Under the pieces are notes generated by a model. That model did no database searches, was not told where the DNA came from, and saw only the letters and a program-made list of their open reading frames with translations. A stretch of 64,000 nt of DNA from positions 620,001 to 684,000 of the forward strand of contig NZ_JAMHIV010000001.1 in NCBI RefSeq assembly GCF_023897065.1, in the 5' to 3' direction. This document shows positions 1 through 15,412 of the stretch, piece after piece. Position 1 is the stretch's first letter; each line of letters begins with the position of its first letter. The position numbers were made by a program, and so were the translations under genes. Origin of the DNA: Crossiella sp. SN42 (lineage in GTDB: Bacteria > Actinomycetota > Actinomycetes > Mycobacteriales > Pseudonocardiaceae).

Positions 1-15
1 GGATGATGGAGGTCT

Positions 16-1812
16 TCACGTGTGCTCCGGCTGGTATCCGGCGGCTTGGAGGTTGAACAGGTAGGCGTAGTGGCCGCCCTGGCGCATGAGTTCGGTGTGG
101 GTGCCCTGTTCGACGAGTTTGCCGCCCTCGATGACGATGATCTTGTCGGCGATCCGGACGGTGGAGAAGCGGTGGGCGACCAGCAGGCTGGTGGAGGTGT
201 CGGCGATGGTGCGGAAGCGTTGGAAGATCTCGGTTTCGGCCTCGGCGTCGATGGAGGCGGTGGGCTCGTCCAGCACCACGATCGGCGCGGCCCGCATGAA
301 CGCCCTGGCCAGTGCGACCTTCTGCCACTGGCCGCCGGAGAGCTGGTGGCCGTTCTCGAAGTGCCGGCCCAGCATGGCGTCGTAGCCCGCCGGGAGAGTG
401 TCCACAATGGAGTCAGCGCCACTGGCCTGGGCGGCGCGGCGGATCCGGTCGGTGTCGGCGCGGTGCTCGATCTGGCCGAAGCCGATGTTGTCCCGCACCG
501 GCAGCTCGTAGCGGATGTAGTCCTGGAAGATGACGCCGAGGTTGCGGCGCAGGTCCTCCAGGTCGAACTCCTGGATCGGCACGCCGTCGAGCAGGATCTC
601 CCCGCTGGTGGGTTCGTAGAGCCGGGTGAGCAGCTTGACCAGGGTGGTCTTGCCCGCGCCGTTCTGGCCGACCAGGGCCACGCAGTTGCCGGCGGGCATG
701 GTGAAGCTGACCCGGTCCAGGACCTGTTCGCTGGTGCCGGGATAGGTGAAGCTGACCTCGCGGAACTCGATGCCCTGGCGCAGCCGCTCCGGGAACTTCC
801 GTTGCCCGCCACGAATTTGCCGCTCGGGCAGGTCGAGCAGCTCGAACAGGTTGCTCACGAACAGCTTGTTCTCGAACAGGTTGGCCACGCCGACCAGCAG
901 GGTGTGCCCCGAGGCCTGCACGATGCCGATCGCCTGGAGGTACCCGGCCAGCTCGCCGATCTGCCCGGTGTCCTTGGTGGCCAGCATCGCGAACACCAGC
1001 GCCCCGGCCGAGATCAGCACGCTCACCAGACCGAACACGCCCAGCGAGACCGACTGGCGGCGGGTGATGTCGCGGTCCACCCGCAGGAACCGCTGCACCT
1101 GGTCGCGGTAGGCCTTGATCAGGTGTCCGTCGAGCTGGAAGAGCCGGACCTCCTTGAAGGAGTGGTCGGTGGTGGTCAGGTACTGGAGGTAGAACAGGCG
1201 ACGACGATCGGCGGCCCGGCCGTACTCGATCTCGTACATCTTCTTGCCGTACCACATCTGCGCGATCGCGGACGGGATCGGCGAGATCAGGATGAGCACG
1301 GCGACCCAGAAGTTCCAGGAGAACAGCACCGCGGAGACGGACAGGATGGTGATCAGCTCGCGGGCGAAGGCCAGGGTGTCGGTGAACAGTTGGTGGATCC
1401 GGGTCCCGCTGCTCTCCTGGAAGGCGCGCTGGAGCTTGTCGTAGGAGTCGGCGTCCTCGTAGTCCTGGAGCTCCATCCTGGTGCCCTTGCGCATCACCTC
1501 CTCGCCGACCGCGGTGGACAGGTGCAGGCGCAGCACCGAGTCCAGGTAGCCGTGCCACACCCCGAGCAGGTGCGCGGCCACCGAGACCGCCAGGATGAGC
1601 AACCCGACCGCGAGCACCGTGGGGCCGAAGTCGCCCTCGCCGCGGGCCGCGATCGCCTCGGCCACGGTCTGCACCGCGGTGGCGGTGAGCTGCAACTGGA
1701 TAGCGGGCACCACCGAGACCGCGACGGTGACCAGGATCAGCGCCAGCACGCGCAGCGGGCTGAGGTCCCACAGCATCTTGGCGATCCGCAGCCAGTGGTT
1801 GTTCGGGTTCAT
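16..1812 (-). CDS. Lanthipeptide-type ABC exporter (LanT-like, permease fused to ATPase)
   Basis: A 598-aa half-transporter that probably exports the modified lanthipeptide. The first ~320 residues hold hydrophobic membrane helices of the ABC exporter type. The nucleotide-binding domain has a Walker A (VGQNGAGKTT), a signature loop (LSGGQWQKVALARA) and a Walker B (IVVLDEPTASID). There is no N-terminal C39 peptidase domain, so it should not cleave the leader. The ATG at 1812 is chosen because it overlaps the lanB stop (ATGA), which suggests translational coupling; the frame stays open upstream, but only as a shadow of lanB. It is the last gene of the lanC-lanB-transporter run visible here; more cluster genes could lie left of position 1. 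The family is certain; the substrate is inferred from the neighbours. Confidence 0.88.
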   Translation of the reverse strand: MNPNNHWLRIAKMLWDLSPLRVLALILVTVAVSVVPAIQLQLTATAVQTVAEAIAARGEGDFGPTVLAVGLLILAVSVAAHLLGVWHGYLDSVLRLHLSTAVGEEVMRKGTRMELQDYEDADSYDKLQRAFQESSGTRIHQLFTDTLAFARELITILSVSAVLFSWNFWVAVLILISPIPSAIAQMWYGKKMYEIEYGRAADRRRLFYLQYLTTTDHSFKEVRLFQLDGHLIKAYRDQVQRFLRVDRDITRRQSVSLGVFGLVSVLISAGALVFAMLATKDTGQIGELAGYLQAIGIVQASGHTLLVGVANLFENKLFVSNLFELLDLPERQIRGGQRKFPERLRQGIEFREVSFTYPGTSEQVLDRVSFTMPAGNCVALVGQNGAGKTTLVKLLTRLYEPTSGEILLDGVPIQEFDLEDLRRNLGVIFQDYIRYELPVRDNIGFGQIEHRADTDRIRRAAQASGADSIVDTLPAGYDAMLGRHFENGHQLSGGQWQKVALARAFMRAAPIVVLDEPTASIDAEAETEIFQRFRTIADTSTSLLVAHRFSTVRIADKIIVIEGGKLVEQGTHTELMRQGGHYAYLFNLQAAGYQPEHT

Positions 1813-4800
1813 GCCGTGGCCTCCGGTGCGGGTCGGCCGCCGATGGCGCGCAGAGCCTGCCGCCACAGCGCGTAGAGGTGCGATTCGCGGCGCAGGTCGA
1901 TCGGCAGCAGCCGGTTGATCTGCATGTGCGCCAGGCTGCCCAGCACCCCGGCCTCGGTGCCCCACAGCTGCCCACCGGTCACCGCCGCCTGCGCCGCGGC
2001 GACCGCTTCGCGTTGCGGGGCAAGGACTTCTGCGATCATCTCGTGGTGCCGTCTGCCCTGTTCGTGCGGGCGGAAGTCCCACGGGACCAGGAGCTCGGTG
2101 AGATAGGCGCGGTGCTGCTGGAACTCCGCGCGCACGAGGTCGGCGTCCGCGCCGCCGCTGCCGGGCAGCAGTTCCATGCGTTCCTTCGGCGCGAGGCCCC
2201 ACTGCCGGTACAGGGTGTCCACGGCGGCGATCGCGGCGAAGTCGGGGCGCAGGTCACTGTCGTTGTGCAGCAGGGAAACCAGGTCGGCGGTGACCGCGCT
2301 GTTGGCGGCGAAGACCTCCTCCACCGTGTCGTAGACCAGCGGGCCGCCGTAGCGCTCGATCTCCGGGGTGTAGCCGGCCAGCGCGGTGTCGAAGGCGAGG
2401 CCCTGCTCGACCAGCTGCTTGCCCCACACCGTGAGCTGCCACAGCAAAGCGGGCTCGGCCTCGGGGTGCGCGGCGCGGAAGCGCAGTCGCAGGTGCGGGC
2501 GCGGGTCCATGTAGCGGATGTAGAACCAGCGGTCGATCAGCCCCTGCTCCCCCAGCATCGCGACCAGCTCGCGCAGGCCGGTGCTGATGATCTCGTCCTG
2601 CTGGGCCATTCCGGTGTACAGCTTGAGGAAGCTCCACTGACCGCCGGGCAGGTGCAGCCGCGCCGGAGCGTCGTCGGTGTCCACCGGCGCGGACAGCGTG
2701 ACCTCGCTACGCGCGGTGTCCGCGCTGCTGCGGGCCAGCAGCGGCACCACGATCTCCTCCAGGTAGGCCGCGCCGTCGGTGTCGCGCAGCCACTGCTGGC
2801 CAAAGGCGGGCAGCATCTCGTGCACGGTCACCGGGCCGCGGTTGAGCTCGGTGGCCAGCTCGTCCAGGCAGACCGGGTGGTCCAGGTCGAGCAGCAGCCG
2901 GTTGTCCGCCTCCACCAGGTACACGTGCCTGGGCACCCGCCACTGCTCCCGCCAGGCGCGGACCTCGGCGGCGAAGTCCTTGCCCGGCAACGGGTTCAGC
3001 CGCCACTGCGCCGGGCGCAGCACGACCTTGCCGCGGCTGACCCTGGGCAGGAAGGGCATCGTGTCCAGTGGCCCCCAGCGGAAGCCGCAGGGCATGGCGT
3101 AACCGTCGTTGGAGACCTCCAGCACGAACCGGGCCACGTTGGGCGCCACGTGCGGGCTGAGCATGTGGTTCTGCGAGACCACCACCTGCTTGCCCAGTCG
3201 CTTGGACCACAGGAAGAGCCGGTCCTCGGTGGCGCCGACGCACAGGTCGGCCAGGTCGATCACCCGCTCCGGCGGCACCGAGGGCGCGGTGTTGACCGGG
3301 ACCTCGTAGCCGCGCAGCAGCGGCCGCAGCGCCACGTTGGCCGCCCGGCCGTGGTTGGGCAGGTAGCACAGCTCGGCGTAGACCACCTCGGGGCTGAGCT
3401 CCTCCTCGCGGCGGGCGTAGCCGCGCAGCCGGTCCACCGCCTCCTCGCCGAGCAGGTCGAAGAACCGGCCGGAGGTGCGGCCGCCGAAGGCCAGGCCCTC
3501 CTCGCGCAGCACGGCCCGCCACTGCCCTGCCGAGTGGTCGGCAGCGAGCTGGGCGTAGACGTCCAGCGCCGGGTACAGCGCCAGCGACGGCGCGTCCTCC
3601 GGCGGGGCGAAGCGGTTCAGCCACTCGTCGGTCAGCTCGATCTCGGCTTCGCCGGAGCACCAGGCCTGCACCGCGAACTCGGTGAGCACCCGGTCGAAGT
3701 CCTGCTGCCAGGGCTCGCCGACGTTGTGCGGCAACGGATAGGAGCGCGGCGGCTCGGTGTAGGTGGGGGGCGCGTCCAGGCCGTGCTCCGGGCTGAGCAG
3801 CTCCAGCACCGGCACCAGCGCGAGCAGCCCGTAGCGTTCGGTGAAGGCGTCCCGGTACTGGGCGAGGTGGTGGTTGTGGCCCGGCAGCGCGGCGGACAGG
3901 CGCATCAGGCAGTCCACCGCCTCCGCCACCGCGTGCCCGACCTCGGCGGTGAGCTGGGGCTGGGCCAGGTCCAGGGTGGCGTCCAGCTGGTAGGTCGGGC
4001 CGGTGTGCTCGGGGGTCAGCGCGCGCTGGGCGGCGGTCAGCGCGGCCAGCGCGGCGGGGTCCGCGCTGGTGGCGGCGTGGTGGGCCAGGTCGATGACCTC
4101 GCGCAGCGCCTCGGCGGTGCCGGCCGCGGCCTCGATCCCGGCCAGTGCCTTGGCCAGGTGGGCCTCCGGGTGGGCCACGGTCAGCGGCGGGCGCAGGTCG
4201 CTGGTCAGGAAGTTCAGCGTGCGCAGCTCGTCCACCAGCCCGGCGACCCTGGCCGGGTCGACGCCGGGGAACTCCTCGGCCAGCGCGGTGAGCAGCTGCC
4301 CGTACGGGATCGGGGTGGCGGCCAGCCTGGTCACCGCGAGCGCGGCGGTGGTGGCCCGCACCCGCACCGCGCGGTTGTCGTTGTGGCCGTAGATGTCGGC
4401 GTAGGGCAGCACCAGCCGGTCGCCGCTGTGGTGCACGCTGGAGTTGAGCACCACCCGCAGGTGCGGCCGCAGCGCCTCGTCCTCCTCCAGCTGCTTGATC
4501 AGGGTCAGCAGCCAGGCCATGTCGGCGCGGATCCGGTTGTCCCGCAAGGCAGGGACGCCCAGCCGCGCGGTGGTCTCCGCGCCGAACTCGCCGACCGCGA
4601 CACCGGAGAACGCGCCGAAGGGGGTGGGCCGGGTGGTCATCCTGGTGAGGTAGCGCAGCAGCCGGGAGTGCAGCCGCCGGGCCCGCTTTCCGTTGGCGGC
4701 CGGGCGGTCCAGGGCGTCGACCAGGTCGCCGCTGGCCACCGCGAGCGCCCGGCGCACCTCCGGCCGCGCGGCCAGTTCGCGCAGGCGGCCGTGCACCTCG

Positions 4801-4907
4801 GCGCGGGCCTGGTCCGGATCGCCGATGGCGAGCAGGTCCTGGAAGACCTTGGCGGGCAACGCGGGGGCGCGCAGCAGGAAGAAGTCGGCGGGTTCGTAGC
4901 GGGCCAT
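1809..4907 (-). CDS. lanB: Class I lantibiotic dehydratase LanB
   Basis: A 1032-aa protein, the usual length of full LanB enzymes (NisB is about 1000 aa). LanB enzymes dehydrate Ser/Thr in the precursor using glutamyl-tRNA. The N-terminal ~750 residues match the lantibiotic dehydratase (glutamylation) domain; it opens MARYEPADFFLLRAPALP, a typical LanB start. The last ~280 residues are the SpaB_C/thiopeptide-type elimination domain (SFLKLYTGMAQQDEI, then WFYIRYMDPRPHLRLRF). Both domains are in one chain, unlike split LanBs of thiopeptide clusters. The start is the ATG at 4907, two bases after the lanC stop (TGACCATG); its own stop overlaps the exporter ATG. Genes lanC, lanB and exporter therefore form one coupled transcript. 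Confidence 0.95.
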   Translation of the reverse strand: MARYEPADFFLLRAPALPAKVFQDLLAIGDPDQARAEVHGRLRELAARPEVRRALAVASGDLVDALDRPAANGKRARRLHSRLLRYLTRMTTRPTPFGAFSGVAVGEFGAETTARLGVPALRDNRIRADMAWLLTLIKQLEEDEALRPHLRVVLNSSVHHSGDRLVLPYADIYGHNDNRAVRVRATTAALAVTRLAATPIPYGQLLTALAEEFPGVDPARVAGLVDELRTLNFLTSDLRPPLTVAHPEAHLAKALAGIEAAAGTAEALREVIDLAHHAATSADPAALAALTAAQRALTPEHTGPTYQLDATLDLAQPQLTAEVGHAVAEAVDCLMRLSAALPGHNHHLAQYRDAFTERYGLLALVPVLELLSPEHGLDAPPTYTEPPRSYPLPHNVGEPWQQDFDRVLTEFAVQAWCSGEAEIELTDEWLNRFAPPEDAPSLALYPALDVYAQLAADHSAGQWRAVLREEGLAFGGRTSGRFFDLLGEEAVDRLRGYARREEELSPEVVYAELCYLPNHGRAANVALRPLLRGYEVPVNTAPSVPPERVIDLADLCVGATEDRLFLWSKRLGKQVVVSQNHMLSPHVAPNVARFVLEVSNDGYAMPCGFRWGPLDTMPFLPRVSRGKVVLRPAQWRLNPLPGKDFAAEVRAWREQWRVPRHVYLVEADNRLLLDLDHPVCLDELATELNRGPVTVHEMLPAFGQQWLRDTDGAAYLEEIVVPLLARSSADTARSEVTLSAPVDTDDAPARLHLPGGQWSFLKLYTGMAQQDEIISTGLRELVAMLGEQGLIDRWFYIRYMDPRPHLRLRFRAAHPEAEPALLWQLTVWGKQLVEQGLAFDTALAGYTPEIERYGGPLVYDTVEEVFAANSAVTADLVSLLHNDSDLRPDFAAIAAVDTLYRQWGLAPKERMELLPGSGGADADLVRAEFQQHRAYLTELLVPWDFRPHEQGRRHHEMIAEVLAPQREAVAAAQAAVTGGQLWGTEAGVLGSLAHMQINRLLPIDLRRESHLYALWRQALRAIGGRPAPEATA

Positions 4908-4909
4908 GG

Positions 4910-6277
4910 TCACCGCGCCAGGAACGCGGTCAGCCAGGTGGGGCGGGCCGGGCTGATCGCGGCGAGCAGGGTCAGCGCCACCCCGGTCGAGCCGGTGAGC
5001 AGCCCTGGGCAGTCCACGAACAGCCCCGGCTCCTCCTGGTCGCGGAAGACCAGCGGGTGCGCCGGATCGGCGTGTGAGAGCAGCTCGGCGAGCAGCCGCG
5101 GGGTGTGCTCGCGGGCCGCTTCGCTGCCGGCGGCGGCGAACTCCAGGCAGATGGCCAGCACCCCGGCCACCCCGTGACAGAAGGTGGGTGAGAGCGCGGG
5201 CCGTTCCTCGCTGCGCCGCAGCACGCCCTCGAACGCCGCGAAGGCCGCGGCCCGCAGCTCGGCGTCGCCCAGCGCCTCGCTCGCGGCGAGCAGGGACACC
5301 GCGACCCCGGCGGTGCCGTAGCACCAGCCGATCTGGTCGTTCGGCTGGTTCGGCCGGACCTCCTCGCCGGAACCCGCGACTGGGATCTCGGTGGCCCACA
5401 CCGGACCGTGCTCGTCCGCGCGCCGGACCTCCAGCAGCCAGTCCACCATCCGCCGGATGGCCCCCACCTGCCCCGGCCGCCGGTGCCCGCGTTGCCTGGC
5501 CACGGCCAGTGCCGCGACCGCGCCGGGAATGCCGTGGGAGAGGCCGAGGTTGAGGTAGCCGCCGGGGAACTCCCTGGGGTCGCGGCCCAGTGGCGCGCAC
5601 AGCTCCGGGGAGATCAGCCAGCGGCGGGTGATGGTGAGGTCGCGGGGTGGCTCGCTGAGCCAGATGAGGTAGTCCAGCAGGCGCTGGGCGGCGGCGCGCA
5701 GCGACTCGTCGGGGTCCGGGATGGAGCAGAGGTAGACCAGGGTGCCCGCGGCGCCGGTGATCAGGTCGTAGTCGGAGTCGCTGACCGCGCGCTCGGTCAT
5801 GGGCAGTTCCAGCTCGGCGACCTGGGCGGCGAACTGCTCGTGCAGTCGGCGCAGGCTGGGCGCGAACCGGGGTTCGGCCTCCACGCAGCCGGCCACGCAC
5901 AGCGCGAGGCCGCCGGTGCCGGAGAACACGCCGGGGGCCAATAGCGGTTGGACCTGGGTGCCCGCCACCGCCTCGCGGATGAAAGCGAACCCGGCCGCCA
6001 GGGAACGCGCGCTCTCTACCTCATTGGGGGCAACGGCCGCGGCGTGCACATGGAGTAATGCGATTCCGGCGTGGCCATACCCGAAGCTGGGTAAGTACCA
6101 TTCCATCGGATGCATCGTCTGCTCGGTGAATCGCATGACATGATCGATGACCTCGGCGGAATCCGCGGTTCTCCGCGCGACCTCCCAGGCCACTTCGCGG
6201 GCTTTGGCCGCAAGCGCCGCGGGGACTACTCCGTGCCAGGCAGTCGCGGATTCCCTGGCCACTGTTTCTGCGCGCAT
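4910..6277 (-). CDS. lanC: Lanthionine synthetase C-like cyclase LanC
   Basis: A 455-aa LanC. LanC cyclases use zinc to join Cys thiols to dehydrated Ser/Thr and make (methyl)lanthionine rings. The zinc ligands are visible as Cys319 (WCYGTAGV) and Cys367-His368 (FCHGVAG); His248 lies in the conserved SHGIPG loop. The repeated Gly-rich helical turns fit the LanC alpha/alpha toroid. The start is the ATG at 6277, preceded by a G-rich AGGGG stretch about 7 nt upstream; the frame extends 23 codons further but into the lanA-lanC hairpin spacer. It lies directly downstream of the precursor gene, separated by a strong inverted repeat. Confidence 0.94.
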   Translation of the reverse strand: MRAETVARESATAWHGVVPAALAAKAREVAWEVARRTADSAEVIDHVMRFTEQTMHPMEWYLPSFGYGHAGIALLHVHAAAVAPNEVESARSLAAGFAFIREAVAGTQVQPLLAPGVFSGTGGLALCVAGCVEAEPRFAPSLRRLHEQFAAQVAELELPMTERAVSDSDYDLITGAAGTLVYLCSIPDPDESLRAAAQRLLDYLIWLSEPPRDLTITRRWLISPELCAPLGRDPREFPGGYLNLGLSHGIPGAVAALAVARQRGHRRPGQVGAIRRMVDWLLEVRRADEHGPVWATEIPVAGSGEEVRPNQPNDQIGWCYGTAGVAVSLLAASEALGDAELRAAAFAAFEGVLRRSEERPALSPTFCHGVAGVLAICLEFAAAGSEAAREHTPRLLAELLSHADPAHPLVFRDQEEPGLFVDCPGLLTGSTGVALTLLAAISPARPTWLTAFLAR

Positions 6278-6319
6278 GACAACCCCTGTTCCTCTGCACT
6301 GATGCGGTAGGGTCCAGCG

Positions 6320-6358
6320 GCGGGTGCTGCCGTGTCGTCGACACACGGCAGCACCCGC
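6320..6358 (-). terminator. lanA-lanC intergenic hairpin (attenuator or processing site)
   Basis: A perfect 16-bp inverted repeat (left arm GCGGGTGCTGCCGTGT, 7-nt loop) sits in the 105-nt gap between the precursor and lanC. No T-run follows on the transcribed strand. In lanthipeptide operons such hairpins often limit read-through so that the precursor mRNA is in excess over the enzymes; that role is inferred here. Confidence 0.75.
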
Positions 6359-6382
6359 TTCAGCCCGACTAGCTGCGGGTAC

Positions 6383-6562
6383 TTACCGCTTGGGGCAGCC
6401 GGCGGTGCACGCGCCCTGGGTGCAGCGGCAGGTGAAGCCGGAGCAGAGCGGGGTCCTGGTGCACGCCAGGCGGGTGATCACACTGGTAATCGACAGCGGC
6501 TGCGCCTGGCCGTTGCTCGCCGCCGGAGTGCTGACCCTGGCGTCCAGATCAAAAGCGTCCAT
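6383..6562 (-). CDS. lanA: Class I lanthipeptide precursor LanA
   Basis: A 59-aa precursor. The leader MDAFDLDARV carries the FDLD box recognised by class I LanB/LanC enzymes (nisin has FNLD). A likely cleavage site follows Pro22-Leu23 or Ser24 (AQPLS before ITSVITRLAC). The core then has six Cys (34, 40, 45, 47, 52, 56) and nine Ser/Thr, ending CTAGCPKR. The ITS opening resembles nisin, and the crowded FTCRC segment resembles intertwined C-terminal rings of nisin- or epilancin-like peptides. The basic, ring-rich core suggests an antibacterial cationic peptide with up to six rings. The start is chosen by the leader and by an AGAAAGGTG site about 9 nt upstream; the frame runs 35 codons further upstream without a leader-like sequence. 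I do not recognise the core as a named lantibiotic. Confidence 0.93.
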   Translation of the reverse strand: MDAFDLDARVSTPAASNGQAQPLSITSVITRLACTRTPLCSGFTCRCTQGACTAGCPKR

Positions 6563-6753
6563 TTGACATTTCACCTTTCTGTGATTGTGCGGCGCGATTT
6601 TCTCGCGCTCACTTCGGACCCTAGGCGGGGCCGCGTACACAGCGCTGTCACAGGATTGCAGTCGCATGTCAACAGGCTCTTACTGTGAGTAGTTCCGAAC
6701 ACACCGCCCGCGGGTTAAGGTGTCCTTCTCCGATGCTTAATTGGGGGTTTGAC
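6563..6753. promoter_or_regulatory. Divergent lanA / SARP control region
   Basis: A 191-nt gap between the divergent precursor and activator genes. It is less GC-rich than the flanks. It holds a 10-bp palindrome ACAGCGCTGT (6639-6648) and a TAGGGT hexamer on the lanA strand that could be a -10 element. I could not define clear SARP heptamer direct repeats by eye. Confidence 0.5.
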
Positions 6754-8586
6754 GTGCTCAAACACGACGACAGGCTTTACTGCGAGGTACTCGGGGCGCT
6801 GGCCGCGCGCCGTGGTCCGGTGCGCATCGAGCTGGGCTGGGCGCGGCAACAGGCAGTGCTGGCTGTTCTGCTCACTCGAATGAACCAGCCGGTGCCGGTG
6901 GAGGCGCTGATCGAGGCGGTGTGGGCGGACAATCCGCCGCAGGGGGCGCGGAACACGGTGCAGACCAACATCAGCAGGCTGCGCCGCGCGCTGCGGCCTG
7001 CCGGGGCCACCGACGACCGGGACGCGGTGGTGGTGCGCACCGAGGCCGGTTACCTGCTGCGCGGGGAGCCCGACCAGCTGGACGCCCTGGTCTTCGAGCA
7101 GGAGGTGGCCGCGGCCCAGGAGCACCAGCGGGCCGGGCAGTGGCGGGCGGCCGCCGAGTCGGTGGGCTCGGCGCTGCGGCGCTGGCGCGGGGAGCCGTTC
7201 AGCGGCCTGGACAGCCCGTACCTGCACGCGCACCGGCTGCGGTTGCGCGAGTGCCACCTGCTGGCCCAGGAGCTGTCCGCGGCGCTGGCGCTGGACCGCG
7301 GCGAGCACCGCACGGCGGTGGCCGAGCTGACCGCGCTGGTGACCCGGCACCCGCTGCGGGAACGGTTGCGGGAGCTGCTGATGCTCGCGCTGTACCGCTC
7401 GGGCAGGCAGGCCGAGGCGCTCGGGGTGTTCCAGGACGCCCGCGTGGTGCTGGCCGAACAGCTCGGCATCGACCCCGGCCCGGCCATGCGCGGGCTGCAC
7501 CAGCGCATCCTGACCAGGGACCCGGAACTGTCCGCGCCGCCGCGACTGGCCGGTCCGCCGGTGGTGCTCGCGCCCGCGGTGACCGTGGAGCAGCTACCCG
7601 CGGATCCGTTGTCCTGCACCGGAAGGGAGGAGGAGCTGCGGCGGCTCACCGAACCGTCGGCGGCCGTGGTGGTGCACGTGGTGGACGGCATGCCGGGGAT
7701 CGGCAAGACCACCCTGGCCGTGCGGGCCGCGAACCTGCTCGCCGCCGACTACCCGGACGGCCGGATCTTCCTGCGCCTCAACGCCTTCGCCGCCGCGCAG
7801 CCACCGCTGCCGCCGTACCAGGCGCTGGCCGCGCTGCTGCTCGCGGTCGGTGTGCCCGCCGCCGCGCTGCCGGAGACCGAGCACGCCCGCGCCGCGCTGT
7901 GGCGGGAACGCTTGCGGGACAAGCGGTTGCTGCTCATCCTGGACGATGCCGCCGGGCACGAACAGGTCCGGCCGCTGCTGCCGGGACCCGGCCGGTGCCG
8001 GGTGCTGATCACCAGCAGGCGGCGGCTGAGCGCGCTGGAGGGCGTGCGCTCGCTGGAGCTGAACCCGCTGCCGCTGGAACAGGCCGCCCGGCTGTTCCAG
8101 CGGCTGGCCGGTCCGCGCGAGCAGCCGGTGGACCCGGCCGCGGTCAACGAGCTGGTGGCGCTGTGCGGCGGGCTGCCGCTGGCGATCACGTTGCTGGCCG
8201 GTCGATTACGCCATCATCCGCGTTGGACCGAGCGTTACCTGGTGGACCTGCTCAGCTCGGCCCGGACCCGGCTGAGCGAGCTGCACGCGGAGAACCGCAC
8301 GCTCACCGCCGCGTTCGAGCTGTCCTACCAGGGCCTGCCGGTGGAGACCCAGCGGCTGTTCCGCTGCCTCGGCCTGTGCTCAGGTGTCGAGGTCGACCCG
8401 CCGCACACGGCGGCACTGGCCGGGTTGACCGCCGCGGCGGCCCGGCGCGGGCTGGAACTGTTGTACGACAACCACTTGCTCACCGAGTCCGCGCCCGGCC
8501 GGTACGTGCTGCACGAGCTGGTCAAGGAGTACGCGGCGACGCTGGCCGAGCTGGAGGACCCGACGCTGATCCAGCGCGCGGGCTGA
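6754..8586 (+). CDS. SARP-family activator with NB-ARC domain
   Basis: A 610-aa AfsR-like transcription activator. An OmpR-type winged helix (VLGALAARRGPV to NTVQTNISRLRRAL) is followed by a bacterial transcriptional activation domain (about residues 105-250, TRHPLRERLRELLMLALYRS) and an NB-ARC ATPase with Walker A (GMPGIGKTTLA), Walker B (LLLILDD) and the GLPLAIT motif. It ends without the C-terminal TPR region of AfsR. I chose GTG at 6754 because GGGGG lies 6 nt upstream and the protein then starts near the winged helix; an in-frame GTG at 6685 would add 23 residues with no visible domain. Its divergent position makes it the likely pathway activator of the lanthipeptide genes. Confidence 0.9.
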   Translation: MLKHDDRLYCEVLGALAARRGPVRIELGWARQQAVLAVLLTRMNQPVPVEALIEAVWADNPPQGARNTVQTNISRLRRALRPAGATDDRDAVVVRTEAGYLLRGEPDQLDALVFEQEVAAAQEHQRAGQWRAAAESVGSALRRWRGEPFSGLDSPYLHAHRLRLRECHLLAQELSAALALDRGEHRTAVAELTALVTRHPLRERLRELLMLALYRSGRQAEALGVFQDARVVLAEQLGIDPGPAMRGLHQRILTRDPELSAPPRLAGPPVVLAPAVTVEQLPADPLSCTGREEELRRLTEPSAAVVVHVVDGMPGIGKTTLAVRAANLLAADYPDGRIFLRLNAFAAAQPPLPPYQALAALLLAVGVPAAALPETEHARAALWRERLRDKRLLLILDDAAGHEQVRPLLPGPGRCRVLITSRRRLSALEGVRSLELNPLPLEQAARLFQRLAGPREQPVDPAAVNELVALCGGLPLAITLLAGRLRHHPRWTERYLVDLLSSARTRLSELHAENRTLTAAFELSYQGLPVETQRLFRCLGLCSGVEVDPPHTAALAGLTAAAARRGLELLYDNHLLTESAPGRYVLHELVKEYAATLAELEDPTLIQRAG

Positions 8587-8587
8587 G

Positions 8588-9889
8588 TCAGTTCGGTTTC
8601 AGCGGCTGGGCGCGGGTGGTGCGGTCCAGGTAGGCGACGCCGTCGTACTCCGCGCCCAGCCGGAAGGTCAGCGACTCCTTCTTCATCGTCTTCCAGAACC
8701 CGACCACCGAGCCGTAGCCGCGCATCTTGTGCTTGCCCGCCAGCCATTCCCTGGCCACCGGGTCCGGCCGCGCGTGCCGCAGGTCCACCAGGTGGTCACC
8801 GCCGACCTTGGCCAGCTGCCATTCCAGGGTGCCGGGCTCGGCCGGGTCCAGGACGAACTCGGCCAGCTCGGTGCCCCCCATCTGGATGGCCTGGAAGCCG
8901 CCCTCGTTGGCCACCAGCGCCAGCGCGTAGTAGCCGTCGCCGAGCCGGTCCCGCAGCTCCGCGCCGAGTGCGGCCTCCTTGCTGGAGCGGGTGGCGGCGG
9001 AGAGGTGTCCGTTGTGCGCCCACAACATCACCCGGCCGTCGGGCTGCTCGTCCAGGATGCGGCTGACGGCCGCGCCCATCATCCGGTCGCGCAGGTGCCC
9101 GCCGGCCTGGCCGAGGGTGGGCAGGGTGCGCAGCTCCGCGGCCCGGTCCACCGCCCAGGCGTGCCACTGCGCCTCGTGCCAGGCCGGGTCCTCGGCCGGG
9201 TGCGCGGCCAGCCAGGCCACTGTTTCGCGCACCACCTCCCTGGCCGCGAGCACCTCGTTGTGCTCGGCCGCGGCCCGCACGCCCGGCACGTGCCGCCACA
9301 GGTACCGGAACGCCGCGCGCAGCACGCCACCGACGCTGATCTTGGTGACGTCCGGGCGCAGCGCCCTGGCCGCGGCCCGGAACGCCCTCGCCCTTTCAGA
9401 GTCCACAGTGGACAGATACCCGCCGATGGCTTCGACGCCGGTCTTGTCCAGCACCGGATCGACCCCGCGGAAGCGCACCCGCCGCTCCAACGGGAGGTTC
9501 GCGTTGTGCGCGCGCAGCCATTCGACCAGGGCGTGCACCTCCTCGGTGTACCAGGTCCAGAAGCCGACCTTGCGCAAGGCCAGCTCGGCGGTCCCGGTGC
9601 CGTGCACCACGTAGTCGTCCACCGCGCGGCAGGCCGACCAGCCGGCCTCGATGGCGAAGGTGGTGAAGCCCAGCTCGGTCACCAGGAACTCGACCAGCCG
9701 GTGCTTGAGCGTGAAGAACTCCCTGCTGCCGTGCGTGGCCTCCCCCAGCCCGACCACCCGCACCCCGTCGAGCGCTTCGGCCAGCGGCTTCAGGTCGTCC
9801 ACCCCGTTGCCGGGCTCGACGGTGCGCAGCGGGATGGCGTGCTCGGCCAGCCAGGCGGTGATCAGCTCGGCCTGGGCATCCTGTGACAT
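8588..9889 (-). CDS. Erythromycin esterase-family protein
   Basis: A 433-aa protein of the erythromycin esterase (EreA/EreB) and succinoglycan-biosynthesis hydrolase superfamily. The GLGEATHGSREF motif carries the conserved Glu and His of the active site, and FAIEAGW carries a second Glu; MLWAHNGHLS holds a further conserved His. Family members hydrolyse macrolide lactones or have unknown roles, so the substrate here is open. The ATG at 9889 has an AGGAGG site 7 nt upstream. It converges on the SARP gene with one base between stops, and no terminator is visible. A link to the lanthipeptide cluster is not supported. Confidence 0.82.
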   Translation of the reverse strand: MSQDAQAELITAWLAEHAIPLRTVEPGNGVDDLKPLAEALDGVRVVGLGEATHGSREFFTLKHRLVEFLVTELGFTTFAIEAGWSACRAVDDYVVHGTGTAELALRKVGFWTWYTEEVHALVEWLRAHNANLPLERRVRFRGVDPVLDKTGVEAIGGYLSTVDSERARAFRAAARALRPDVTKISVGGVLRAAFRYLWRHVPGVRAAAEHNEVLAAREVVRETVAWLAAHPAEDPAWHEAQWHAWAVDRAAELRTLPTLGQAGGHLRDRMMGAAVSRILDEQPDGRVMLWAHNGHLSAATRSSKEAALGAELRDRLGDGYYALALVANEGGFQAIQMGGTELAEFVLDPAEPGTLEWQLAKVGGDHLVDLRHARPDPVAREWLAGKHKMRGYGSVVGFWKTMKKESLTFRLGAEYDGVAYLDRTTRAQPLKPN

Positions 9890-9923
9890 TCGGTGACCTC
9901 CTGACACCGGAGGGTACCGAAGA

Positions 9924-10964
9924 TCACCGGGTGCTCGAGCGCACCCGGGTGGTCCACGAGGCGCTGCCGCCCGGCGCTCGGTCGCCGAGCGCGATGAGCG
10001 CGCAGGTCCTGCCCTGATCGTGCAGCGACTGGGCGATGGTGGTCAGGCCCGCGCGTTCGGCCTCCGGGCCGTCGTCCCAGCCGGAGACCGCGAGGTCCTC
10101 GGGCACCCGGAGTCCGCGGGCGCGGGCGGCGTCGAGCACCGCGAAGGCGAGTTGGTCGCTCATGGCCACCACCGCGTCCGGCGTGCGGAAGTCGAAGAGC
10201 AGGGCGGCCACCGCGGCGGCCTCCTCGCGGTCGTTGCGGGCCACCACGGCCACCGGCAGACCGCGCGGGTCCAGGCCTGCCCGCTCGCAGTGGTCGTAGA
10301 CGCCCTGGAGGCGTTCGCGGGTGACCGGGAACGGCACCTGGTCGGCCTCCGGCCCGGTTTCCAGCCGTGGCCTGCGTTCGCGGTCGAAGGGGAAGCTGAG
10401 CACGGCCGGGCGCTGGGCTCCGGCGAAGGTGCGCGCGGCGATGTCCCTGGCGGAGGCGCGGTTGTCGATGCCGACCACCTGCACGCCGGGCACCGCCGGG
10501 CCGCCGTGGATGGCGACCGGTTTGCCCAGCCCGCGCACCACCTCCAGCACCGGGTCGTCCTGCACCGTGGTCCACACGATGTAGCCGTCGACGGCGGCCG
10601 AGCGCACCCGCTCGACGTCCTGGTCCGCGCCGGTGGTCGGGATCAGGTTCAGGCCGCTGCCTCGCTCGCGGCACACCTCGGCCACGCCGGTCAGGAACCG
10701 GCGGGCCTGCGGGTCCTCGAAGGCGTAGGCGAGGTGCTCGCCGAGCACCACCCCGATCGCGTCGTTGTGCCGCTTGCGCAACGACCGCGCGGTCGGGTCC
10801 GGTCCCTGGTAGCCCAGTTCGGCGGCGGCCTCGCGGACCCGGCGCAGGGTGTCCGGGGCGACCCGGTCCGGCTGGCTGTAGCAGTAGGACACCGTCATCG
10901 GCGAGACACCGGCGCGGCGCGCCACCGCCGCCATGGTGACGCGCGGCGATCCGGGGCTGGACAT
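9924..10964 (-). CDS. LacI-family transcriptional repressor
   Basis: A 346-aa LacI/GalR regulator. The N-terminal HTH (RVTMAAVARRAGVSPMTVSYCYSQPDRV) is followed by a periplasmic-binding-protein-like effector domain (AIGVVLGEHLAYAFED to VSGWDDGPEAE). The ATG at 10964 is used; a GTG two codons upstream is possible. It is divergent from an MFS transporter and separated from it by about 30 bp containing a LacI-type palindrome, so it very likely represses the transporter and itself. The effector is unknown; a sugar or other small exported molecule is plausible. Confidence 0.88.
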   Translation of the reverse strand: MSSPGSPRVTMAAVARRAGVSPMTVSYCYSQPDRVAPDTLRRVREAAAELGYQGPDPTARSLRKRHNDAIGVVLGEHLAYAFEDPQARRFLTGVAEVCRERGSGLNLIPTTGADQDVERVRSAAVDGYIVWTTVQDDPVLEVVRGLGKPVAIHGGPAVPGVQVVGIDNRASARDIAARTFAGAQRPAVLSFPFDRERRPRLETGPEADQVPFPVTRERLQGVYDHCERAGLDPRGLPVAVVARNDREEAAAVAALLFDFRTPDAVVAMSDQLAFAVLDAARARGLRVPEDLAVSGWDDGPEAERAGLTTIAQSLHDQGRTCALIALGDRAPGGSASWTTRVRSSTR

Positions 10965-10978
10965 GCCCACACCCTATC

Positions 10979-10994
10979 TGTGTATCGTTACACA
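10979..10994. promoter_or_regulatory. LacI-type operator between lacI-like and MFS genes
   Basis: The palindrome TGTGTATCGTTACACA has 6-bp arms around a central CG, as in LacI/GalR operators. It ends immediately before the MFS ATG at 10995, so a bound repressor would cover the start site and perhaps a leaderless transcript start. Confidence 0.75.
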
Positions 10995-12215
10995 ATGCGC
11001 GCGGCGACAAGCTCTCGAACGGGTATGGCCCTGGTGGCGCTGAGCACCGCCTGCTTCATCTCGGTCACCTCGGAGAACCTGCCGGTGGCCCTGTTACCGC
11101 AGCTCGCGGCGGGTCTGAATGCATCGGACGCGGCGATCGGCCTGCTGATGACCGGCTACGCGGTGGTCGTCGCGATCACCGTGATGCCGCTGGTGGTGCT
11201 CACCGCCCGCTGGGACCGCCGGACCACGGCCCTGGTCACGGTGATCGCGATCGCGCTGTCCAACCTGCTGCTGGCCCTGGCGCCCAGCTACGGCGTCGCG
11301 GTGGCCGCCCGGCTGGTCTCCGCGGTGGGCCACGGGGTGTTCTGGTCGGTGGTCGCGCCGATGGCCGCCCGCCTGCTGGGACCGGAGCGGGCCGGACGGG
11401 CCACCGCGGTGGTCTTCGCCGGGAACTCACTGGCCCTGCTGTTCGGCCTGCCCCTGAGCTCCTGGCTCGGCTCGACCCTGGGCTGGCGGCCCACCGTGGT
11501 CGTGCTGGCCGTGGTCGCGGCACTGTCCGCGGTGGCCATCCGCGCCACGGTCGAGCCGATGCCGGCGGAGCACGCCACGCCGGGACAAGGACTGTCCGCG
11601 CTCCGGCAGGTGGTGACCGACCGTTCGCTGGCCGCGGTGAACCTGACCACGGTGCTGGTGGTGCTGGGCCACTTCACCGCCTACACCTACATCACCGCGA
11701 TCATCGCCGACTACGCCCACCTCACCGGATCGGCGACCGCGGCCCTGCTTTTCGCTTACGGCGCAGCGGGTCTGCTCGGCCTGGTGCTGATCGGCCGAGC
11801 GCTGGACAGCCACCCCCAGGCCACCGGCCTGTTCGTGGCCGGCGGTCTGGCGGTCTGCATGCTGGCGCTGCTGACCCTCGGCCCAAGTTCGGGACTGCTC
11901 AGCGGCGCGGTGGTCGTGCTCTGGGCGGCACCCGCAGGCGCGATCGGCGTGGTGCTGCAAGCCGCGGTGCTGCGCGCCACCGCGACCCGGCAAGACCTGG
12001 CTTCCAGCGTCTACATCGTGGCCTTCCAGATCGGCATCGCGGCGGGCGCCGGCCTCGGCGGCTTCTTCCTCGCCCAGGACGCGCTGCCGCTGGCGGTGGC
12101 CACGACGGCGGTCTGCGGACTCATCGCGCTGCTCGTGGTGCGCCGATCGACCGCTTTCGCCGCGCCAGCCGACCGCGTCAGCCAGGCCAGAACCGCACGG
12201 CGAACAACAGCATGA
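10995..12215 (+). CDS. MFS transporter (DHA1-type drug/sugar efflux)
   Basis: A 406-aa major facilitator with about 12 hydrophobic segments in two halves. It opens MRAATSSRTGMALVALSTAC and has a DHA1-like profile (PVALLPQLAAGL at the first loop, RLVSAVGHGVFWSVVAPMAARL in helix 4). Such proteins export drugs or sugars by proton antiport. There is no ribosome site between the operator and the ATG, which suggests leaderless translation. Its 3' end overlaps the convergent membrane protein gene by 38 nt. Regulation by the divergent LacI-type protein is inferred from the operator. Confidence 0.87.
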   Translation: MRAATSSRTGMALVALSTACFISVTSENLPVALLPQLAAGLNASDAAIGLLMTGYAVVVAITVMPLVVLTARWDRRTTALVTVIAIALSNLLLALAPSYGVAVAARLVSAVGHGVFWSVVAPMAARLLGPERAGRATAVVFAGNSLALLFGLPLSSWLGSTLGWRPTVVVLAVVAALSAVAIRATVEPMPAEHATPGQGLSALRQVVTDRSLAAVNLTTVLVVLGHFTAYTYITAIIADYAHLTGSATAALLFAYGAAGLLGLVLIGRALDSHPQATGLFVAGGLAVCMLALLTLGPSSGLLSGAVVVLWAAPAGAIGVVLQAAVLRATATRQDLASSVYIVAFQIGIAAGAGLGGFFLAQDALPLAVATTAVCGLIALLVVRRSTAFAAPADRVSQARTARRTTA

Positions 12216-12516
12216 ACCCCAGGCCGATCGAGAAGAACACCGTGAAGCCCCAGCGCTTGACGCAGGTGGCGATCACCGTCCCGGCCGCGGGCGGCAGTAC
12301 GGCGCAGGCGGTCGCGGCCCAGGCCAGCGTCGCACTGGCGTCCGCGCGCAAGGCGGCGAAGTAGGCGCTCAACCCCAGGACGGGCAGGACCAGCAGCCAG
12401 CTGATGGCCAGCGCGGGCAGCAGCACATCGCCCGGCTTGCCTCCCGGCTCCGGTTCCGCATCGGTCACCGGTGCAGTGTGCGCCGATCCAGCGGCCCGGC
12501 ACATGAGTGGAACCAC
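12178..12516 (-). CDS. Small membrane protein of unknown function
   Basis: A frame of up to 112 aa with three strongly hydrophobic segments (LPALAISWLLVLPVLGL, TLAWAATACAVLPPAAG, FFSIGLGFMLLFAV). I do not recognise a family. The start is uncertain: ATG at 12516 or 12504, or GTG at 12468 just before the DAEPEPGGKPGD segment; none has a strong ribosome site. It overlaps the convergent MFS gene by 38 nt at the 3' end. The hydrophobic pattern on a strand without another gene supports a real gene. Confidence 0.5.
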   Translation of the reverse strand: MVPLMCRAAGSAHTAPVTDAEPEPGGKPGDVLLPALAISWLLVLPVLGLSAYFAALRADASATLAWAATACAVLPPAAGTVIATCVKRWGFTVFFSIGLGFMLLFAVRFWPG

Positions 12517-12684
12517 CTAGTGTCCTGAGTCGGAAGTTCGCCAGCGGTCTCGACGGCCCAGCTTCCCACTGACCGCACCGCCGGAAAGCCCACGTACAAC
12601 CCGGTACGAGGGCTTCCCTGCGGCACGCCCAGCGGAAACCTGGACCGCCGATACCGCCACCGAACTTCCGACTCAGGACACTAG
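12517..12684. mobile_element. 168-bp MITE-like palindromic element (copy A)
   Basis: Perfect 24-bp terminal inverted repeats (12517-12540 and 12661-12684, beginning CTAGTGTCCTGAGTCGGAAG) bound a non-coding element. A nested central hairpin has arms AAGCCCACGTAC and GTACGAGGGCTT around AACCCG. The ends are CTAG, the preferred target of IS630-type transposases, which duplicate TA. A second element of nearly the same length and centre occurs at 35611-35776. No transposase is present, so it would have to be mobilised in trans. Whether it still moves, or acts as a terminator or insulator, is unknown. Confidence 0.7.
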
Positions 12685-12966
12685 CGCACCGCACCCCGGC
12701 TGTTCATTGACATGAACAACCCAGGTACCTTATGGTCTAGACCACATTACCCTGTGTGACATTCGGACCCGCCGCCTCGTCCGTGTGCCACGGAGCCGGC
12801 TCGCCGGTCGGTGTCGTGACGCGCGTGAGCGGAGCGAGGTGGTGGCGTGTCCGTGCCTCCCGCGCCGCGGCGCCGGCCCTGCCCGGCGCAGGCACCTGTT
12901 GATCGCGTGCGACGGGGCACGACGTCGGGCGCAGCCGCCGGGACGATCCCGGCAGGGAGCTGACCC
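12685..12966 (+). promoter_or_regulatory. LPMO promoter and long 5' leader
   Basis: This stretch has no supported gene. A TTGACA hexamer (12707-12712) faces a TATGGT-like -10 (12731-12736) with an 18-bp spacer. The -35 lies in an 18-bp inverted repeat (TGTTCAT TGAC ATGAACA, 12701-12718), a second possible operator. The -10 overlaps the DasR site. The remaining ~220 nt would be an unusually long leader before the LPMO start, with no further motif that I can name. Confidence 0.6.
12733..12744. promoter_or_regulatory. DasR-responsive element (dre)
   Basis: TGGTCTAGACCA is the exact palindromic core of the operator bound by DasR, the GntR-family GlcNAc regulator of actinomycete chitin metabolism. 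It overlaps the putative -10 of the chitin-active LPMO gene, so GlcNAc-dependent derepression is expected. Confidence 0.85.
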
Positions 12967-13698
12967 ATGACTCTCAGACGCCTGTTCACCATGGCCGTGG
13001 CCGCCCTCGGCATCACCCCCTTCCTGCTGGTGGTGATGCCCGCGAGCCCGGCGTTCGCGCACGGCTACATCTCCTCCCCGCCCAGCAGGCAGGCCCAGTG
13101 CGCGCAGGGCACCGTGCCCTGCGGGCCGATCAAGTACGAGCCGCAGAGCGTGGAGGGACCCAAGGGGCTGCGCAGTTGCAGTGGCGGCAACGCGCCGTTC
13201 ACCGACCTCGACGACGACAGCAAGGGCTGGAAGGCCACCGCGGTCGGCGGCACGGTGAACTTCACCTGGACCTTCACCGCCCGGCACCGCACCCGCGACT
13301 ACGAGTACTACCTCAACGGCCAGCGGGTGGCGCTGATCGACGGCGGCAACGTGCAGCCACCGCCCACCGTCTCGCACACGGTGAACCTGGGCGGCGCGAC
13401 CGGCAGGCAGAAGCTGCTGGCGATCTGGAACATCGGCGACACCCCGATGGCCTTCTACGCCTGCGTGGACCTGCAGATCGGCGGCGGCGGCACCCCCACC
13501 ACCAGCCCGACCACCAAGACCACCACGCCGACCACGACCAGCACTCCCCCGCCCGGCGGCACCTGGGCCTCGGGCACCGCCTACCAGGTCGGCAGCCAGG
13601 TCACCTACAACGGCAGCACGTTCCGCTGCACCCTGGCGCACACCGCGCTGCCCGGCTGGGAACCCCCGAACACCCCCGCCCTGTGGCAACAGGTCTGA
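12967..13698 (+). CDS. Secreted AA10 lytic polysaccharide monooxygenase with CBM5/12
   Basis: A 243-aa secreted copper enzyme that should oxidatively cleave chitin (or cellulose). A signal peptide ends at SPAFA, leaving His32 of HGYISSPPSRQ as the mature N-terminus. Together with His107 (FTARHRTRDYEYY) it forms the copper histidine brace. The AA10 motif SCSGGNAPFTDLDDDSKGW is intact. A Thr/Pro linker (about 168-190) leads to a C-terminal carbohydrate-binding module (TWASGTAYQVGSQVTYNG ... ALWQQV) of the CBM5/12 type found on chitinases. The upstream dre supports a chitin role. Confidence 0.95.
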   Translation: MTLRRLFTMAVAALGITPFLLVVMPASPAFAHGYISSPPSRQAQCAQGTVPCGPIKYEPQSVEGPKGLRSCSGGNAPFTDLDDDSKGWKATAVGGTVNFTWTFTARHRTRDYEYYLNGQRVALIDGGNVQPPPTVSHTVNLGGATGRQKLLAIWNIGDTPMAFYACVDLQIGGGGTPTTSPTTKTTTPTTTSTPPPGGTWASGTAYQVGSQVTYNGSTFRCTLAHTALPGWEPPNTPALWQQV

Positions 13699-13759
13699 CC
13701 GCTACCGGCTCGCGCCCCAGCCGCCGGGGGCGCGGGCCGGTGTCCGAAAGGCAACCACC

Positions 13760-14353
13760 GTGAACCGAGCCCTCCTCGCCGCCGTGCTCGCCGTCGTGCT
13801 GCTCGCCGGCTGCGCGAGCACCCCGCCAAACCCCGCTGCCGCAACGCCTTCACCGTCCGCGTCGCCCGCCACGGCCACGGCCGCCGCGAACTTCAACGAC
13901 GCGGACGTGATGTTCCTGCAGATGATGCTCCCGCACCACGGACAGGCAGTGCAGATCGCCAAGCTGGCCAAGGACAAGGCCACCCGCAAGGAGATCAAGG
14001 ACCTGGCCGTCGCCGTCGAGGCCACCCAGCTCGCCGAGGCGGAGACCATGACCGGGTGGCTGCGGTCCTGGGGGCGACCGACCACAGTGGACACCAACCC
14101 GGACCTGCACGCCCACCACGGCGGCATGCCCGCGACCTCGAAGGAGGTGATCGACGCGCTGGCCAGGACCGGCGGGGGCAAGTTCGACCGGGATGCGGTG
14201 AACGTGCTGACCGGGCACCAGCACGGGGCGGTGGAGATGGCCCGAAACGTGTTGCGGGATGGCAGCAATCCGCAGGTGAAGGAGCTGGCGGACCGGATCG
14301 TGAAGTCGCGCACGGCGCAGATCCAGCAGCTGCTGGCGTTCCTGGGTCAGTAA
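13760..14353 (+). CDS. DUF305-family lipoprotein
   Basis: A 197-aa lipoprotein: a short hydrophobic leader ends in the lipobox LAGC (Cys about residue 18), followed by a Pro/Ser/Ala-rich spacer and a DUF305 four-helix domain. The family signature residues are present (MMLPHHGQAVQIAKLA, HHGGMPATSKEV, LTGHQHGAVEMA). DUF305 proteins bind ferritin-like helices and some are tied to copper handling, but the role is not settled. GTG start at 13760 with AAAGG upstream. It lies 61 nt after the copper-dependent LPMO, which makes a copper-related job worth testing. Its 3' end overlaps the convergent hydrolase by 7 nt. Confidence 0.85.
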   Translation: MNRALLAAVLAVVLLAGCASTPPNPAAATPSPSASPATATAAANFNDADVMFLQMMLPHHGQAVQIAKLAKDKATRKEIKDLAVAVEATQLAEAETMTGWLRSWGRPTTVDTNPDLHAHHGGMPATSKEVIDALARTGGGKFDRDAVNVLTGHQHGAVEMARNVLRDGSNPQVKELADRIVKSRTAQIQQLLAFLGQ

Positions 14354-15309: not shown

Positions 15310-15412
15310 GGCGGAAACCCTATCCGGTTGGGCCGAACGGGTGAACTCGTATGCATATGGATTCCCTGGCTGGCTAGCGTCGGTTTTCCACCGCCAAGGG
15401 AAATGTGAGGAC

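What the first reader, a model, noticed from the sequence alone, without database searches (positions are those of the whole stretch)
16..8586. Class I lanthipeptide cluster with an unfamiliar six-Cys core peptide
Seen: a 59-aa precursor with FDLD leader, six Cys and nine Ser/Thr in the core, followed by complete lanC, lanB and an exporter, with a divergent SARP activator. Known: these enzymes make lanthionine rings. Inferred: a basic peptide (ending CPKR) with up to six rings, an ITS N-terminus like nisin and a crowded FTCRC segment. I do not recognise the core among named lantibiotics. No leader protease is in view.
Basis: partly seen in the sequence, partly recalled or inferred. Interest (0 to 1): 0.75.

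Follow-up and report, generated by a model that had tools for sequence, protein, structure and literature searches.

The report
Lanthipeptide operon with a D-amino-acid enzyme
A bacterium of the genus Crossiella carries a complete gene set for an antibiotic-like peptide with up to six predicted rings, and just outside the stretch first read lies one more gene that probably converts some of its building blocks into mirror-image amino acids, which is not yet established for this class of peptide.

Summary
Window 16-8586 carries a divergent SARP regulator and an operon lanA-lanC-lanB-exporter; the 59-aa precursor has an FDLD leader and six Cys, and its orthologues show purifying selection. The genus is Crossiella. 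All 10 homologous clusters found in five Crossiella genomes (three in this genome) and 18 Streptomyces loci carry it after the exporter. In this genome its only close relatives are the two sister clusters' copies and the LLM of a class V lanthipeptide-like cluster (E 5e-96; the next LLM is at 1e-12). It most likely is LanJC, the F420H2-dependent enzyme that reduces dehydroalanine to D-alanine (as LxmJ of lexapeptide does). Ser24, ahead of the first ring and kept in 17 of 17 precursors counted, is the likeliest target. The TCxC motif predicts an interlocked ring pair like nisin rings D/E. A Pro at -2 puts the core start at Ser24 rather than at 'ITS'. No clear leader protease was found nearby; an erythromycin-esterase-like neighbour is a weak candidate. 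Verdict: a new variant of class I lanthipeptide; the product is untested.

The parts
6383..6562 (-). lanA: 59-aa precursor, leader MDAFDLDARVSTPAASNGQAQPL, predicted core SITSVITRLACTRTPLCSGFTCRCTQGACTAGCPKR (core start inferred)
   Evidence: (NF038155 31.2 bits, cut-off 20)
4910..6277 (-). lanC cyclase, 455 aa; C319, C367, H368 (zinc ligands by recalled analogy to NisC) invariant in 8 of 8 aligned
   Evidence: best solved relative MadC 8byk, E 4.3e-49
1809..4907 (-). lanB full-length dehydratase (glutamylation plus elimination domains), ATG at 4907, 2 nt from lanC stop
   Evidence: best solved relative MadB 9g04, E 4.6e-143
16..1812 (-). ABC exporter (lanT-like), 598 aa, no C39 peptidase domain found; ATG overlaps lanB stop
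1..19 (-). first codons of the LanJC-like LLM oxidoreductase; the gene continues for 977 bases left of base 1 (L009 15024-16019); its GTG overlaps the exporter stop
   Evidence: PF00296 1.1e-29; TIGR03564 is the best family, below its cut-off
6631..6650 (-). promoter-side element TGACAGCGCTGTGTACGCGG upstream of lanA, kept with few changes in 10 of 10 Crossiella clusters; possible SARP site (inferred)
6685..8586 (+). divergent SARP/AfsR-like regulator (BTAD, NB-ARC)
   Evidence: next to lanA in 10 of 10 Crossiella clusters (in L010 cut by the contig end)
8588..9907 (-). erythromycin-esterase-like (PF05139) hydrolase, possible accessory gene
   Evidence: link weakened by an unlinked 63% identical paralogue

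Best explanation
A five-gene operon, probably switched on by the divergent SARP, makes a class I lanthipeptide with D-alanine. LanB binds the FDLD leader and dehydrates Ser/Thr through glutamyl esters. LanC then closes up to six thioether rings, including an interlocked pair at the TCxC motif. The F420H2-dependent LanJC reduces dehydroalanine that is not used for rings to D-alanine, most likely at Ser24 and, in this precursor, perhaps Ser27. The ABC transporter exports the peptide, and a protease encoded elsewhere removes the leader, probably after Leu23 (Pro at -2). Shown here: genes, order, domains, orthology, conservation and LanJC kinship. Inferred: regulation, the reductase's reaction and sites, ring pattern, cleavage point and activity.
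For: Domains and order. Same SARP-A-C-B-T-LLM order in 10 of 10 Crossiella clusters from 5 genomes. Of the 80 LanB loci kept (of 222 relatives), 20 carry the LLM within about 200 nt after the exporter: 2 Crossiella (the same clusters as G003's) and 18 Streptomyces. Own genome: the four best LLM matches are the three class I copies and the copy in the C25 cluster (E 5.3e-96 or lower); the fifth is 1.1e-12. The C25 cluster has HopA1, M16 peptidase and PF02441 flavoprotein domains, which I read as class V (recalled). Of 24 other close LLM loci, from 23 further genomes among the 394 searched, 10 lie with homologues of the C25 HopA1 protein and of its 380-aa neighbour, 3 near weak lanC-like sequence (27-30% identity), 3 beside aminotransferase and/or Fe-ADH genes as in daptide clusters, and 8 were not assigned. 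Nine of the ten best fold matches of the predicted model are F420-dependent enzymes. cofD of F420 synthesis is present above cut-off. LxmJ, of the same MSMEG_4879 family, reduces Dha to D-Ala and not Dhb (PMC8068269, passages); a daptide LanKC/LanJC pair turned five Ser to Ala (PMC10036551, passages). Ser24 is kept in 17 of 17 precursors counted, and a second Ser not needed for the first ring in 14 of 17. FDLD-LanB recognition is established for MadB (PMC12241602, passages).
Against: No product has been seen. The LLM falls below the TIGR03564 cut-off (135.8 against 234.25 bits), but so do the class V and daptide-type copies tested. FMN-dependent alkanesulfonate monooxygenases are also among the fold matches. 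In the three C-type precursors counted, the second Ser probably serves the first ring, so only Ser24 is spare. Extra Ser/Thr over Cys also occurs in relatives where no LLM was found, such as Glycomyces L073 and Allokutzneria L070, so the surplus alone proves nothing. Five of 28 class I LLMs fall outside the main clade, and the deep branches are weak. Eight of 24 outside LLM loci had no assigned context. No sequence of LxmJ itself was at hand. No clear protease or immunity gene was identified.
Confidence: 0.72

Rival explanations
1. An ordinary class I lanthipeptide operon in which the LLM enzyme oxidises or otherwise tailors the peptide (or a small substrate) instead of reducing dehydroalanine.
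For: The LLM fold includes FMN monooxygenases; the score is under the TIGR03564 cut-off; 8 of 24 outside relatives have no assigned context.
Against: Sharp kinship gap to the other LLMs of the genome except the one in the class V-like cluster; nine of the ten best fold matches are F420 enzymes; many clade-mates sit in class V-like and daptide-like loci.
Confidence: 0.15
2. The LLM reduces dehydrobutyrine as well, or instead, giving D-2-aminobutyrate at spare Thr (Thr26, Thr35 or Thr37).
For: Cacaoidin carries D-Abu and its cluster has a LanJC-type enzyme (PMC8068269 passages); spare Thr exist in the core.
Against: LxmJ cannot reduce Dhb (same passages); the spare position kept in 17 of 17 precursors is a Ser.
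Confidence: 0.12
3. The cluster is silent or decaying and makes no modified peptide.
For: No expression data; one sister precursor (C-type) has lost its last Cys, CTAGRMR.
Against: The operon genes are open throughout with overlapping or near-overlapping ends; lanA dN/dS up to about 0.36 in 10 comparisons and a kept upstream element in 10 of 10 clusters.
Confidence: 0.05

Closest known systems
Nisin (class I, LanB/LanC)
   Same: FxLD leader (recalled for nisin); LanB profile matches NisB 4wd9 at E 3.4e-74 and LanC profile NisC 2g02 at 2.1e-30; TCxC fits the interlocked D/E ring pair (nisin ring pattern recalled)
   Different: No lanP or lanFEG seen next to it; first rings have another spacing; adds a LanJC-like reductase
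Maddinglicin (MadA/MadB/MadC)
   Same: FDLD leader; MadB and MadC are the closest solved enzymes by sequence
   Different: Clostridium peptide; no LanJC mentioned in the passages I saw
Lexapeptide LxmJ and cacaoidin Cao12 (LanJC, class V)
   Same: F420-dependent LLM of the MSMEG_4879 family, the best NCBIfam family of the present enzyme
   Different: Class V uses no LanB/LanC (recalled); here the enzyme sits in a class I operon and, with 13 Streptomyces copies, forms its own clade
Birimositide LanJC (class II)
   Same: PF00296 enzyme proposed to reduce Dha (PMC7268733 passages)
   Different: Two-component class II peptide
Embleporicin and dmxorosin (actinobacterial class I)
   Same: LanB/LanC products without a clustered protease (PMC11672506, PMC11855644 passages)
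   Different: Four-Cys cores; dmx splits LanB in two; no LLM reductase mentioned in the passages I saw

Membership tests
Class I lanthipeptide | Separate full-length LanB dehydratase with both domains | tested here: met
   PF04738 and PF14028 over nearly full length
Class I lanthipeptide | Separate LanC cyclase with Cys-Cys-His zinc site | tested here: met
   PF05147; C319, C367, H368 invariant in 8 of 8; ligand role by recalled analogy to NisC
Class I lanthipeptide | Precursor with F(D/N)LD leader and Ser/Thr/Cys core | tested here: met
   NF038155 above its cut-off for the three paralogous precursors of this genome
Class I lanthipeptide | Lanthionine or methyllanthionine in the product | not testable with these tools
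   needs mass spectrometry
Class I lanthipeptide | Clustered LanP protease and LanFEG immunity (common, not obligatory) | tested here: inconclusive
   none among ten flanking ORFs scanned with Pfam, but a trypsin-like ORF (26.9 bits, cut-off 27.6) lies 4.8 kb from the LLM; exporter has no C39 domain
LanJC reductase | LLM (PF00296) enzyme encoded in a lanthipeptide operon | tested here: met
LanJC reductase | TIGR03564 (MSMEG_4879) family above its curated cut-off (a family sign, not an accepted definition of LanJC) | tested here: not met
   best family but 135.8 against 234.25 bits; the class V-like and daptide-like copies tested also fall below
LanJC reductase | Kinship with LLMs in other LanJC contexts | tested here: met
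   8 of 24 outside loci unassigned; no LxmJ sequence was at hand
LanJC reductase | F420H2 dependence and Dha to D-Ala activity | not testable with these tools
   only indirect: cofD present, fold closest to F420 enzymes
Nisin-type lipid II binder | Nisin-like A/B rings SxxxC-TPxC at the N-terminus | tested here: inconclusive
   TRLAC and TPLC fit in Crossiella, but the ten Streptomyces relatives aligned lack TPxC

The most novel reading that the evidence does not exclude
Crossiella and Streptomyces share a class I lanthipeptide family whose mature N-terminus is D-alanine: LanB dehydrates the invariant Ser24, LanJC reduces it to D-Ala (and Ser27 where it is free), which protects an N-terminal dehydroalanine from breaking down, and the erythromycin-esterase-like (Tiki superfamily) hydrolase is its unusual leader peptidase or clears stray glutamyl esters.
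Probability: 0.22. Interest if true: 0.68.

Novelty: new variant of a known kind. Interest (0 to 1): 0.5.

Why it matters
A 2024 paper states that LanJ-made D-amino acids occur primarily in class II and class V lanthipeptides (PMC11519912, passage), and a 2020 survey foresaw them in class I from LanJA- and LanJB-type genes (PMC7268733, passage). A conserved LanB-LanC-LanJC operon, found in two actinobacterial genera and three times in one genome, makes D-Ala in class I directly testable. It would also offer a reductase adapted to LanB/LanC substrates, useful for making stable peptide antibiotics.

Tried and rejected
Nisin-like A/B lipid II module: TRLAC plus TPLC fits Crossiella, but TPxC is missing from the ten Streptomyces relatives aligned, so I do not claim it. 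'Surplus Ser/Thr only where the LLM is present': rejected, since L070 and L073 have surplus and no LLM match. 'Two spare Ser in every precursor': my first wording, withdrawn on recheck; in C-type precursors the second Ser lines up with the ring-forming Thr30, so only Ser24 is spare there.

Erythromycin-esterase-like gene as a fixed cluster member: near 4 of 5 A-type clusters (own and G004 within 10 nt of the SARP, G001 and G003 about 1 kb away), 0 of 4 C-type (B-type not determinable, contig ends), 13 of 13 Streptomyces loci of the main LLM clade, 0 of the 5 other Streptomyces LLM loci, one Saccharothrix locus without LLM (47% identity), a weak 27% match in Thermosporothrix L076, and 0 of 24 outside LLM loci. 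A 63% identical paralogue in this genome stands away from lanthipeptide genes, so I keep it as possible only. In the tree the C7 row was an ORF on the wrong strand; its placement is void, and one search gives the right protein.

A lanP nearby: Pfam on ten flanking ORFs found no subtilase; a secreted trypsin-like ORF (L009 9346-10191) lies 4.8 kb from the LLM. It was not shared with other clusters' flanks, but the flanks compared were only about 2 kb long on that side for G001 and G003, so it is not excluded. LanC alone against genome contigs found nothing; the second scan used a LanB profile. A precursor profile against PDB found nothing at E 1.
Full report
What is there. On the minus strand of window 16-6562 lie lanA, lanC, lanB and an ABC exporter; a SARP regulator faces away at 6685-8586. 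The lanB start is at 4907, 2 nt from the lanC stop; the exporter ATG overlaps the lanB stop; and the exporter stop overlaps the GTG of one more gene that runs out of the window to the left. That fifth gene encodes a 331-residue luciferase-like (LLM) oxidoreductase (PF00296, E 1.1e-29). The window is contig C1 620001-684000 of a 9.72-Mb genome in 82 contigs. Two contigs of a same-genus genome have exactly the lengths of named Crossiella sp. S99.2 contigs (539,781 and 988,117 bases), so the genus is Crossiella.

Is it real. The precursor scores above cut-off in the NCBIfam model for FDLD-family class I lanthipeptides. Matches lie in 5 of 5 genomes of the genus. In the family search, 7 of 390 genomes match: the five Crossiella genomes, and two with weak hits over the first 35-39 positions only. 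Ten homologous clusters in five Crossiella genomes share the order SARP-A-C-B-T-LLM; three are in this genome. In ten pairwise comparisons of the short lanA gene dN/dS runs from 0 to about 0.36, and an element TGACAGCGCTGTGTACGCGG upstream of lanA recurs in all ten clusters with few changes.

How far it reaches. A LanB profile against genome contigs gave 222 relatives, of which the best 80 were kept. Twenty of 80 have the LLM within about 200 nt after the exporter: two Crossiella loci (the same clusters as genome G003) and 18 Streptomyces loci. In the DNA held for the other 60 no LLM match was found; a few of these loci end soon after lanB. Thirteen of the 18 Streptomyces LLMs join Crossiella's in one clade. 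A precursor was seen in 11 of those 13 loci; L051's contig starts too late to hold one, and none was found in L053. The ten counted have six or seven Cys, and L061's equals L054's. Four loci of the S. noursei type carry a precursor with only two Cys and many Ser/Thr, and L069 a five-Cys one.

The core. Sixteen precursors were aligned: six of the ten Crossiella ones (two of them through their named S99.2 loci) and ten of the eleven Streptomyces ones. Invariant are FDLD, Ser24-Ile25, four Cys, Thr53 and the TCxC motif with its Thr. Ser24 is present in 17 of 17 precursors counted (the sixteen and L011). A further Ser ahead of the first ring-forming Thr is present in 14 of 17; in the three C-type ones the second Ser takes that Thr's place. 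TCxC preceded by another Ser/Thr is the arrangement of nisin's interlocked D and E rings (recalled). In the Streptomyces precursors it is [S/T]-x-T-C-x-C; in Crossiella the first partner sits one residue further away. Pro at -2 to Ser24 in 15 of 16 fits the Pro-2 rule mentioned in PMC11672506 (passage), so I place the core start at Ser24. This is inference.

The fifth gene. Three lines make it a LanJC. First, kinship inside this genome: the four best LLM matches are the three class I copies and the copy in a cluster on C25 (E 5.3e-96 or lower); the fifth is 1.1e-12. The C25 cluster shows HopA1, M16 peptidase and PF02441 flavoprotein domains, while its 380-aa protein has no Pfam match; I read it as class V (set of genes recalled, and listed for lanthidins in PMC8068269, passage). 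Second, of 394 genomes of the class, 24 have an LLM this close (one is this genome). The 24 outside loci lie with homologues of the C25 HopA1 and 380-aa proteins (10), near weak lanC-like sequence (3), beside aminotransferase and/or Fe-ADH genes as in daptide clusters (3), or were not assigned (8). In a tree of 53 LLMs the ten Crossiella and 13 Streptomyces class I copies form one clade (98/96); five further class I copies fall elsewhere, and deep branches are weak. Third, the predicted fold of the L049 orthologue (mean pLDDT 86.7) best matches F420-dependent Mer and alcohol dehydrogenase (TM about 0.7-0.76), though FMN monooxygenases also rank high. The F420 gene cofD is present. Against: the score is under the TIGR03564 cut-off, as it is for the class V-like and daptide-like copies tested.

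What is known. LxmJ, the first LanJC, reduces Dha28 to D-Ala in lexapeptide and cannot reduce Dhb (PMC8068269, passages); the reduction raises potency (PMC8498797, passage). A daptide LanKC/LanJC pair turned five Ser into Ala (PMC10036551, passages). LanJ chemistry is described as primarily class II and V (PMC11519912, passage). A class I member with LanJC did not appear in the listings and passages I saw from my searches of the open-access library; subscription papers are not covered. Class I, III and V clusters in Crossiella are in print as antiSMASH predictions (PMC9415966, passages).

The missing protease. No peptidase domain was found in the exporter. Ten flanking ORFs scanned with Pfam gave no subtilase and no LanFEG-like gene; one trypsin-like ORF 4.8 kb from the LLM scores just under its cut-off. 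Clusters without a protease are typical of actinobacteria (PMC11672506, passage). An erythromycin-esterase-like gene abuts the SARP here and recurs directly after the LLM in 13 of 13 main-clade Streptomyces loci. Its closest solved relatives are 'succinoglycan biosynthesis' proteins and EreC. A free-standing 63% identical paralogue in the same genome makes its role uncertain. A homologue of unclear function was noted in graspetide loci (PMC8939145, passage). Two literature searches listed three papers and one paper; of these I opened only PMC8939145.

Verdict. A genuine class I lanthipeptide operon of a sub-family shared by Crossiella and Streptomyces, whose notable feature is a LanJC-like reductase outside the original window. 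It is a new variant of a known kind. All chemistry remains to be shown.

Noticed in passing
L157 (G000:C25:84001-104000), 9265-17684: A class V lanthipeptide-like cluster in the same genome: PF02441 flavoprotein, LanJC-like LLM, ABC transporter, HopA1 domain protein, a 380-aa protein without Pfam match, two M16 peptidase genes and two small ORFs with VDVEEL/VDVAEL segments.
   Followed up: partly
L011 4044-4220: The C-type sister precursor has lost its last Cys (CTAGRMR); the same-species genome G004 keeps it (CTAGCMR), while G001 and G003 have CTSGSVR and CTSGSTR.
   Followed up: partly
L193 (G000:C10:16001-36000), about 9842-16998: Two further LanB-like genes (746- and 777-aa ORFs; PF04738 hits) beside genes that read like a carbamoyltransferase, an aminotransferase and an NRPS (by eye): another pathway.
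   Followed up: no
L063 8428-8610, and L064-L066: S. noursei-type class I clusters with the LLM but a two-Cys, Ser/Thr-rich precursor; possibly a peptide with many D-amino acids and few rings.
   Followed up: no
window 12967-13698: Secreted-looking protein with a HGYISSPPSRQ stretch, resembling an AA10 lytic polysaccharide monooxygenase (recalled, not tested).
   Followed up: no
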